DNA of 64,000 nucleotides from Enoplosus armatus (Eukaryota > Chordata > Actinopteri > Centrarchiformes > Enoplosidae). Each line of letters starts with the position of its first letter. The first letter of the stretch is position 1. The translations under genes and the position numbers were made by a program. The notes under the pieces were generated by a model, which saw only the letters and a list, made by a program, of their open reading frames with translations, was not told the origin of the DNA and ran no database searches. Positions 16,201-19,200 of the stretch are shown here, piece after piece. The DNA is taken from contig NC_092191.1 of NCBI RefSeq assembly GCF_043641665.1, forward strand, positions 15,717,501 to 15,781,500, written 5' to 3'.

Positions 16201-19200
16201 CATACTGTTTGGCCGCAGTGTTTAAAGGTATATGTGTTATAAACCTCTCACTACATCCCCCTCCCCTCCCCCCTCTGCTGACACTAATTTGTTCCAGGTT
16301 CTGTATGTAAACATCACATGCCCTATATGGTTGTTTAACAACTGCTGTTCATATTGACTCACCCTGTTTGTTTTATTTTTGTTTTCCTGTCTAGAGGAAC
16401 ACAGTTATTTTAGAAGTCATTAAATGGGGCTGCTTGTGTTTTCTCTGCTGTTAATTCACTCCATCTCTGTGTTTTCTTCTCCTACCATGATAATGTGGAC
16501 ATGCTTTCTGCCGCCCTAATCTTATGTTGATATGACCTGATGTTGCCATTGTTAACTAGTGATTATTCTCTCGTGCTCTTATCAGCCGTCCTCTCATTCA
16601 CATAACAAGTAATCCCTCCATTTTCTCTCTCTTCCCTTCCTCGTGAATAACCATCATCCTCAACTCCCCGTCTCCCAAAATCCCCCAAATCCCCTCCTCC
16701 TCCTCCTCTCCTCTTCTGCCCCCCCTCCCCCCATCTCCTTCCCGTTCTGCCCCTCCCTCTCTGCAGGACTTCTGGCAGGTATGGGGTGTGTGCCGAGCAG
16801 CATGTGTGCACCTGAATGAAAAACTGCACTTTGTAGTCACAACCTTCTCCCTCCTTCTCATTTATACTCTTTCCTCTTTTTCCTCTTATGTCTCTCTATG
16901 GTTCTCTATCTTTCAATTACTCACTCTCACACTTAGCATAGCTATTCACTGCTGTTAGTCCAGGGGAACAGCTAAGTAAGTTGTTTTTCTGTATTTACCA
17001 CTTCTCAGCTTCAGCGTGAGAAGTGTGAAACCAGAGTCATGGCCTTTAGTTAAGTTTACAGCCGTGCATAGGACAGCAACCAAACTGTGCATTTAAGTTT
17101 ATATCATCTAACAAGAAATCAGTAGACTGGTAGTAGAAATGTTGAATTCACATCTGGCTTTTCTCTCACAGGGTATACGTGCTGTAGGTTTTGTACACAG
17201 CCTGAAGGCGGAAGTCAAACAGCATGAGGAAGGAGTAGAATAAAGCACCACTGCTGTATTTTCTCATATAATAAAGCAGATTATATCATGGCCACAGAAA
17301 GTACTTGTTTCTGATTGGCTGGTCAACAGTGCAATTTGTATTTACAGCATTAACCATTTTTAAAGAAACTTTAAAGATGGTTGATGGTTTGAGTACTGCT
17401 TCTCTTATTATACGTGGCCATGGTATAATAATACATTCTGAGATGTCCTAATATGGAAAATAACAAATTAGGTGGAGGAAACGCCACTCTGCTTGTTGTC
17501 GTGGTGTTCTTCACCACTGCCTCATCTGTTCATTTCATATACAAGGACACTTAAGTCGCTCATATCACTTACATAAATGTGTATGAGTTTTTTCATTTTA
17601 GCATTTACCTGCTCCCAGTTTCCAGCAATGCTCCAAAATATTTCACCATTGAAGAAACCTTTTGTGATTCAAATGTTTGGATATACACATTTATGTTGGT
17701 ATGTGTAGATAAATGAGCCTTGACCTATAAGCTTCATCTACTGAATGATTTGGCCTTTTAGCAGGTCTGAATCGCTTCTGTCAGTCAGGATGACGTGAAG
17801 GTAAGCCAAGCACAGCAAAGGGCAGGTTACAACCTGTACACCGTATAATGATAGGGAGTGTCGGTAACTGAAGAAGGCACACACCTTATTGAGTATGCAC
17901 TCAAACTGTGTATTGTTATTGGACCTTGTGTTGGAGACCTCCCCGGTGCCCATTGTATAGCTAGTTGGAGGCAGCTGCGTGCCTCGCCCTCCCTGCTGAA
18001 TTATTGAAAGTGAAGACTTTATACTTTGCCTCTACAAGGATTATTAAACTCTTCAGTGTTGCTACATAATTTACACACTAGTCAGTGCCCCAAAGTAAGG
18101 TTCACATACATCTATAGTCGAATTTTAAGGAGAATTTCAAGTCTGACAATGCTTAGAAAAAGCTGCTAAAATTAGTCATTTATTAGGAACTTGTATAAGT
18201 CAATGCCAACTCATAGCAGTGCTGTTCCCCTGCACTCCCTCTGCCTTTTTTTTATGAACACACCTCTTCTCCTCATCCTTTCATCTCTTCTAAGAAATAT
18301 CAGCTCTAGCTTTCCACATGCTTTGGCACTCTAGCCTTTTCCCCCCAGCATGCACTGCTCTATTGCCTGCGTCTCACGGAGAAAGTAGCTGGTGGTGGCG
18401 CCCCCTCTCTGCGCATGGTGGCATCACAGGGTGGTTTTGGACCCAGGAAATGGCTCTATTAGCTAACGTCAAGGCTGTATCGATGTGCTTGATAACCTTC
18501 ACAAATCCATCCTCTGGATTGTCCGGATGTCAGTGCTGCATGATTTCCGTAGAGCATGGTTTAGAGTCACTGAGGGCAGGATTTGGTCTGTACGTCATCT
18601 GAAATGTATCCAAACTCTTCCTACATGCTGCGGCCCTCTCTGTATGTAAAGCCACAGCATCTGCCGTGTGACCTGCTACGACTGAGAGCGGACACCTGTC
18701 ACTCAGAGGGAGTGCGGAGGGGGCTGCTCCAATGGAAACGGGCCTCTTGTCACACCAACTGTTGTCATGTTCACTCTTTCTGCTTTCACAGGAAGCTCCC
18801 AGGGGCAGCTGTTCAACTGTCGCCGTTCTATTTCTCTATCTTTCACACTGTCTTCAATTCTCACATGCTTTTTTGTGCCCTCTCTGTCAATGTTCATCTC
18901 TATAAAAGCTCACAAACACAAACACTGACACACACACTTCATGGTTCTCTGTCTTTTTCCTCTCCTAATCTACAGGAGTAGAGGTTGGGTTGCCTGTACA
19001 CCTGGTCAGCTAATTTGGTTCCTCCTCTCCTCCTGTGAGACAGCTGCCATTCCTCAGTGACTGAAATGTGTTTATTGAGCTGTCCACATCAGGGTCCATT
19101 ATTCTGATTGTGCTCCCAGAATAATTATGAGTTATTAACAGTACACCTGCTCTGCAGTTACCCCTGGGACTAGAGGTGGAAAGCTAATACATTACTGTTC

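What the first reader, a model, noticed from the sequence alone, without database searches (positions are those of the whole stretch)
16767..16778. Fish counterpart of the muscle MICU1.1 microexon (DFWQ instead of EFWQ)
Seen: acceptor after a pyrimidine tract of about 90 bases, 12 bases encoding DFWQ, and a donor, exactly between two phase-0 micu1 exons. Known: mammalian skeletal-muscle MICU1.1 inserts EFWQ at this junction and makes the uniporter more calcium-sensitive. Inferred: the muscle-specific tuning predates the fish-tetrapod split, with a conservative Glu-to-Asp change. Gene predictors usually miss a 12-nt exon 10 kb from a neighbour in the same intron region.
Basis: partly seen in the sequence, partly recalled or inferred. 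Interest (0 to 1): 0.8.

Follow-up and report, generated by a model that had tools for sequence, protein, structure and literature searches.

The report
Fish MICU1 microexons, already known
This stretch of fish DNA holds a real 12-base optional exon that adds four amino acids to MICU1, a protein that sets how easily mitochondria take up calcium; matching exons are annotated in vertebrates from a shark to mammals, so it is ordinary rather than new.

Summary
Window 16767-16778 is a phase-0, 12-nt microexon (GACTTCTGGCAG, DFWQ) with good splice sites, between two micu1 exons of a complete 483-codon gene. A second microexon, 6 nt (TE), lies at 23174-23179. Human MICU1 has the same pair: 5' (four residues) and 5'' (TE), giving MICU1.1, 1.2 and 1.3 (PMC8909990).

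It is the MICU1.1 exon, but three claims need correcting. (1) D does not look like a fish change: of 109 retrieved proteins carrying the insert, 105 read DFWQ, including shark, gar, bowfin, coelacanth, frog, bird, echidna, pig and a monkey. EFWQ is seen only in a vole and a paddlefish; literature gives it for mouse. (2) Gene predictors do find it: 35 of the 120 closest proteins carry it. (3) It is not muscle-only: mouse MICU1.1 is in muscle and brain, and two zebrafish micu1 microexons depend on srrm3 in neurons (PMC13281805).

Best explanation: an old jawed-vertebrate cassette microexon that makes the uniporter open at lower calcium in muscle and neurons. The exon is shown by sequence; tissue use and function in this fish are inferred. 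Novelty: already known.

The parts
13398..13441 (+). micu1 coding exon upstream of the microexons (ends ...KRYDGK, phase 0)
   Evidence: AG acceptor, AAG|GTAAGA donor; protein match
16677..16763 (+). C/T-rich acceptor tract of the 12-nt exon, with TGC at -19 (a second TGC at -5 overlaps the acceptor side); candidate SRRM3/4 and PTB-like sites
   Evidence: 86% pyrimidine at -90..-4; TGC positions; motif role from PMC10551640 passages; function not tested
16767..16778 (+). 12-nt microexon 5', GACTTCTGGCAG = DFWQ
   Evidence: 109 of 283 retrieved MICU1 proteins carry a four-residue insert of this kind at this junction
16800..16804 (+). GCATG, 22 bases after the donor (candidate RBFOX site)
   Evidence: 7% background within 60 bases in this intron, and GCATG is not enriched in the window (156 seen, 168 expected); RBFOX2 dependence of the mouse exon is from PMC8909990
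23174..23179 (+). 6-nt microexon 5'', ACGGAG = TE
   Evidence: human exon 5'' is also TE; 94 of 283 retrieved proteins carry TE, ME or NE at the junction
23180..23233 (+). possible in-frame extension of the TE exon (VTPRGLSVAQLPHPPPPK) ending AAG|GCATGC, a GC-type donor
   Evidence: similar extensions in automatic models of Micropterus, Dicentrarchus and Larimichthys; may be annotation noise
23234..23238 (+). GCATG, 55 bases after the TE donor (candidate RBFOX site; overlaps the possible GC donor)
   Evidence: same background caveat
23917..24031 (+). micu1 coding exon downstream (|KIAQEREKFADE...); its acceptor is a tandem GAG-CAG-AAG
7211..32211 (+). micu1 coding region from ATG to stop, 11 constitutive coding exons (7211-7374, 8442-8622, 10672-10834, 13398-13441, 23917-24031, 25540-25622, 26059-26259, 28174-28311, 29756-29864, 31799-31888, 32048-32211)
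   Evidence: 1452 nt in frame; only strong micu1 match in the genome search

Best explanation
16767-16778 is the fish ortholog of MICU1 exon 5', a cassette microexon. When it is skipped, the cell makes ordinary MICU1. When it is included, four residues (Asp-Phe-Trp-Gln) are inserted after residue 184, about 50 residues before the first EF-hand loop, giving the MICU1.1 form. By analogy with mouse and human MICU1.1, this form binds calcium more tightly and, paired with MICU2, lets the uniporter open at lower calcium. Inclusion is most likely switched on in muscle by RBFOX (GCATG at +22) and in neurons by SRRM3/4 (TGC at -19 and -5) against PTB repression on the long C/T tract. The TE microexon 6.4 kb downstream is the second, mainly neural, module. 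Shown here: exon, splice sites, frame, wide conservation of the encoded peptide in annotated proteins. Inferred: inclusion in this fish, tissues, regulators, effect on calcium.
For: Phase-0 exon with consensus sites in a complete gene. Chance match is rare: 2 hits in the genome search, the other in an unrelated open frame. An insert of this kind at the same junction in 109 of 283 proteins, from teleosts, gar, bowfin, paddlefish, coelacanth, lungfish, frogs, reptiles, birds, mammals and a shark. Human gene has the same two microexons in the same order. Mouse and human MICU1.1 functional data. Two zebrafish micu1 microexons with dPSI -42 and -17 in srrm3-mutant neurons. RBFOX2 silencing blocks the mouse exon in C2C12 cells.
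Against: No transcript from this species was available, so inclusion is not shown. The zebrafish micu1 data I saw are neuronal; I found no micu1 data from fish muscle. The motifs are short: a GCATG within 60 bases occurs at 7% of positions in this intron, a TGC in 19% of C/T-rich stretches, and GCATG is not enriched in the window (156 against 168 expected). Two constitutive exons (e4 at +65, e7 at +30) also have GCATG downstream, and a TGC stands at -6 before the ATG of e2 and at -5 before e10. RBFOX1 silencing did not affect the mouse exon, and the authors note that RBFOX2 expression alone does not explain muscle inclusion. The published structures do not resolve the loop, and my AlphaFold run was too poor to use, so how four residues far from the EF-hands change calcium binding stays unexplained.
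Confidence: 0.85

Rival explanations
1. In fish the exon is mainly neuronal (part of the srrm3/4 program) and the muscle use is a mammalian or tetrapod addition.
For: The only fish micu1 data seen are neuronal: two micu1 microexons change inclusion (dPSI -42 and -17) in srrm3-mutant zebrafish neurons. TGC sites at -19 and -5 fit an SRRM3/4 target.
Against: GCATG at +22 matches the RBFOX-type control of the mouse muscle exon, weakly. A zebrafish survey passage says a smaller fraction of neural microexons is also detected in muscle (PMC12626424); it does not name micu1.
Confidence: 0.25
2. The site is a chance match or decayed pseudo-exon that is no longer spliced.
For: No transcript data here; splice-like 12-nt candidates are common (26 in-frame ones of that length in the intron).
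Against: Identical peptide at the same junction in many annotated fish and other vertebrates; one of only two among 173 candidates that pass both tract and donor thresholds (thresholds set afterwards); 2 genome matches to the pattern.
Confidence: 0.02
3. The four residues serve mainly as a spacer or in partner binding (MICU2, MICU3, MCU/EMRE) and do not change calcium affinity itself.
For: The insert is far from the EF-hands and in an unresolved loop, as the MICU1.1 authors state; MICU2 fails to inhibit MICU1.1.
Against: [quoted passage not shown]
Confidence: 0.25

Closest known systems
MICU1.1 microexon (exon 5') of mouse and human MICU1
   Same: Position between exons 5 and 6, 12 nt, phase 0, three of four residues identical to mouse EFWQ, followed by a TE microexon as in human.
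   Different: First residue Asp instead of the mouse Glu; Asp is the common letter among carriers retrieved (105 of 109). The human residue was not seen in any call.
MICU1.2 microexon (exon 5'') of human MICU1
   Same: 6 nt, TE, lies after exon 5' and before exon 6 (window 23174-23179).
   Different: No difference in the peptide. Some fish models extend it in frame.
zebrafish micu1 microexons DreEX0046514 and DreEX6103867 (PMC13281805)
   Same: Two conserved micu1 microexons in a teleost, srrm3-dependent in neurons.
   Different: The passages I saw give no sequence or length, so which id is DFWQ and which is TE, or whether both are, is not known to me.

Membership tests
MICU1 exon 5' (MICU1.1 microexon) | Lies between the exon ending in ...DGK and the exon starting K-I-(S/A)-Q-E-R-E of MICU1 | tested here: met
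MICU1 exon 5' (MICU1.1 microexon) | 12 nt, frame-preserving, encodes (E/D)FWQ | tested here: met
   DFWQ in 105 of 109 carriers
MICU1 exon 5' (MICU1.1 microexon) | Consensus splice sites | tested here: met
   GCAG acceptor, CAG|GTATGG donor, donor score in the top 0.7% of 4103 GT sites of the window's + strand (weight matrix recalled from memory)
MICU1 exon 5' (MICU1.1 microexon) | RBFOX2-dependent inclusion | tested here: inconclusive
   GCATG at +22 only; 7% background. Dependence itself not testable here
MICU1 exon 5' (MICU1.1 microexon) | Alternative inclusion in skeletal muscle (and brain) | not testable with these tools
   no RNA reads for this species
MICU1 exon 5' (MICU1.1 microexon) | Raises calcium sensitivity of uptake | not testable with these tools
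   needs a calcium-uptake assay; mouse and human data only
SRRM3/4-dependent neural microexon | UGC motif in the acceptor tract just upstream | tested here: met
   TGC at -19 and -5, against a 19% background in C/T-rich stretches; the TE exon has none within 40 bases
SRRM3/4-dependent neural microexon | Loss of inclusion when srrm3/4 is removed | not testable with these tools
   reported for two micu1 microexons in zebrafish, not for this species
[quoted passage not shown]
   23174-23179

The most novel reading that the evidence does not exclude
The DFWQ exon is an ancient jawed-vertebrate microexon under a double code: SRRM3/4-type signals before it for neurons and an RBFOX site after it for muscle. 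Its neural use may be the older one and its muscle use added later, and the Glu form used in mouse work is a local rodent change. My paper searches showed no source that states this polarity; the library lacks most subscription journals.
Probability: 0.25. Interest if true: 0.4.

Novelty: already known. Interest (0 to 1): 0.2.

Why it matters
It supports the view that tuning of the mitochondrial calcium uniporter by a four-residue splice insert is shared by jawed vertebrates, and it corrects which residue is the common one: DFWQ, not the mouse EFWQ. Anyone testing MICU1.1 in fish, or reading mouse results as general, should know that the first residue differs, that a second microexon (TE) sits beside it, and that brain as well as muscle is involved.

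Tried and rejected
Pseudo-exon by chance: rejected. Second micu1 copy in this genome as source of a second DFWQ exon: rejected; a 369-residue MICU1 query gives eight matches on C19 in the window's gene and only weak ones on C21 (E 7.8e-7) and C2 (E 5.5e-4), and the other pattern match, on C8, lies in an unrelated open frame.

Structure: an AlphaFold2 run on 38 aligned MICU1 proteins gave mean pLDDT 45 and was not used. I chose P0019 as its first member believing it carried DFWQ; it does not. I ran no fold search. A second alignment with P0045 first was made and not used; P0045 does not carry DFWQ either. A check for a small exon of the kind recalled for human prosaposin found no 9-nt QDQ-like exon in window 50001-56000.

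Regulators in this genome: a search for PF15230 (recalled as the SRRM C-terminal family) got no answer.

Limits: the three protein searches list only their 120 best rows each, out of 1550, 1527 and 732 matches, and the first two scored only the 7987 candidates sharing most words. All three queries held the inserts, which favours carriers, so 109 of 283 is not a frequency. Rows stand for clusters: P0133 (Microtus, EFWQ) stands for 669 member sequences, P0001 (DFWQ) for 247 and P0132 (DFWQ) for 116, and I did not see the members, so Glu may be commoner in mammals than the rows show. Most of these proteins are automatic models and are not independent proof of splicing. 48 of 283 proteins fitted neither the insert patterns nor the plain junction: extended TE forms, four with an extra Q, other inserted exons, exon skips and fragments.

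Full report
What is there. The window carries a complete micu1 coding region on the + strand. Eleven constitutive coding exons from 7211 to 32211 join to 1452 nt, 483 codons plus stop. The solved human MICU1 sequence of 6k7y matches it along nearly its whole length (E 4.6e-241). In the intron 13442-23916 lie two tiny exons, both phase 0: 16767-16778, GACTTCTGGCAG = DFWQ, and 23174-23179, ACGGAG = TE. All four combinations keep the frame.

Is it more than chance. The 16-base pattern for AG-(D/E)FWQ-GT occurs once in the window and in 0 of 100 shuffles; a simple base-composition estimate gives 3.5e-5 expected in the intron. In the 580-Mb genome a stricter pattern has two matches on both strands. 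The other, on contig 8, is the end of an open coding frame that I recognise from memory as ULK1/2-like, where the DFWQ reading is out of frame. The TE exon alone is weaker: 0.05 expected, one found. Of 173 in-frame AG..GT candidates of 3-27 nt in the intron, only these two pass a C/T fraction of at least 0.7 and a donor score of at least 4; I chose these thresholds afterwards. The DFWQ donor CAG|GTATGG ranks in the top 0.7% of 4103 GT sites (matrix recalled).

Relatives. Three protein searches returned 283 distinct proteins. 109 carry a four-residue insert of this kind at this junction: 105 DFWQ, 2 EFWQ, 2 DSWQ; 94 carry TE, ME or NE; 43 carry both; 75 carry neither; 48 fit none of these patterns. 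Among the DFWQ carriers named in the listings are Stegastes, Oreochromis, Oryzias, Cyprinus, Astyanax, Gadus, Salmo, Megalops, Lepisosteus, Amia, Latimeria, Protopterus (with an extra Q), Xenopus, Bufo, Gallus, Crotalus, Pogona, Dermochelys, Tachyglossus, Monodelphis, Sus, Cavia, Cebus and the shark Carcharodon (checked). EFWQ is in Microtus and Polyodon; DSWQ in two models of Balaenoptera. The simplest reading, without a tree, is that Asp is ancestral and that Glu arose at least twice. Caveats: the lists are capped, the queries held the inserts, and each row stands for a cluster; the Microtus row stands for 669 sequences whose letters I did not see. The human residue was not seen; the paper calls the human exon 'similar to that of mouse'.

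What is known. From PMC8909990 I read the first part of the Results, the first part of the Discussion, the figure legends and passages. Mouse MICU1.1 has an extra exon 5' (EFWQ after residue 181) and is found in skeletal muscle and brain. Human has 5' and 5'' (TE), giving MICU1.1, MICU1.2 (mostly neural) and MICU1.3 (spinal cord, some muscle). MICU1.1 raises uptake and resists inhibition by MICU2; [quoted passage not shown] RBFOX2 silencing in C2C12 blocks the exon, RBFOX1 silencing does not; MBNL1 is not needed. The authors say the loop is unresolved in crystal structures and that RBFOX2 expression alone does not explain the muscle pattern. From PMC13281805 I saw passages only: two micu1 microexons have dPSI -42 and -17 in srrm3-mutant zebrafish neurons. 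PMC10551640 passages describe UGC motifs as SRRM3/4 sites and (U)GCAUG as the RBFOX site. PMC7575740, one passage: MICU1.1 in skeletal muscle and brain. PMC12626424 passages: a smaller fraction of zebrafish neural microexons is also detected in muscle, micu1 not named. Passages of PMC12064062, PMC10853796 and PMC7055370 only mention the MICU1 microexon or MICU1.1; a term search in PMC12626420 found nothing on micu1. Searches for 'DFWQ' with 'MICU1' and for 'MICU1', 'microexon', 'shark' found 0 papers, in an open-licence library that lacks most subscription journals. The original 2016 MICU1.1 paper was not read.

Control signals. TGC stands at -19 and -5 before the DFWQ exon inside an 86% C/T tract, and GCATG at +22 after it; the TE exon has GCATG at +55 and no TGC within 40 bases. 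This fits an exon that both SRRM3/4 and RBFOX can switch on. The evidence is weak: background rates are 19% for TGC in C/T-rich stretches and 7% for GCATG within 60 bases, GCATG is not enriched in the window (156 seen, 168 expected), e4 and e7 also have GCATG downstream (+65, +30), and a TGC stands at -6 before the ATG of e2 and at -5 before e10.

How it works. The insert falls after residue 184, about 50 residues before the first EF-hand loop (sequence). The five solved-structure alignments shown all lack it. By analogy with the mouse and human forms, inclusion lowers the calcium level at which the uniporter opens, which would suit fast muscle and firing neurons. This step is inferred for this fish.

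Verdict. The finding is correct as an observation, and right in naming MICU1.1. It is probably wrong on the direction of the Glu/Asp change, too narrow on muscle, and wrong that annotation misses the exon. It is already known in kind, and two micu1 microexons are already reported in a teleost.

Noticed in passing
window 23174-23179: A second micu1 microexon (ACGGAG, TE), the counterpart of human exon 5'' of MICU1.2 and MICU1.3.
   Followed up: yes
window 23180-23239: The TE exon can be read on in frame (VTPRGLSVAQLPHPPPPK) to AAG|GCATGC, a possible GC donor that overlaps a GCATG. Automatic models of Micropterus, Dicentrarchus and Larimichthys contain similar extensions; other fish models end elsewhere, so it may be noise.
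   Followed up: partly
window 23911-23919: The acceptor of the exon after the microexons is a triple tandem GAG-CAG-AAG. Four retrieved fish proteins have an extra Q here (P0049, P0061, P0086, P0114), and models of two marsupials and echidna (P0192, P0195, P0174) lack the K.
   Followed up: partly
proteins P0121, P0125, P0141, P0151, P0153, P0156 and others: Many placental-mammal models carry a different, long, Lys/Arg-rich exon (about 50 residues, ARFSKKKILHRV...) at this same junction, a third alternative insert that I did not see in the fish or other non-mammal rows.
   Followed up: no
proteins P0135 and P0139 (Balaenoptera musculus): Both blue whale models with the insert read DSWQ, changing the Phe that the other 107 of 109 carriers keep.
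   Followed up: no
proteins P0249 (Silurus), P0255 (Polyodon), P0277 (Protopterus): An extra residue beside the microexon (DFWQQTE, EFWQHTE, QDFWQ), suggesting tandem splice sites.
   Followed up: no
window 38679-40960, strand -: Long Ser/Asp/Glu and Lys/Ala/Pro repeat frames resembling NOLC1 (Nopp140); name recalled; the part tested (38682-40067) has no Pfam match.
   Followed up: no
window 44393-44746, strand +: Ribosomal protein S6 family exon (PF01250), probably mitochondrial S6 (name recalled).
   Followed up: no
window 50154-54348, strand +: Saposin A-type exon (PF02199) and saposin B-like matches: prosaposin-like gene. No 9-nt QDQ-like microexon was found in 50001-56000.
   Followed up: partly
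window 56714-60964, strand -: Nucleoside transporter domain at 56714-57373 (PF01733), with a further frame at 60248-60964 that looks like the start of an SLC29 gene but has no Pfam match (name recalled).
   Followed up: no
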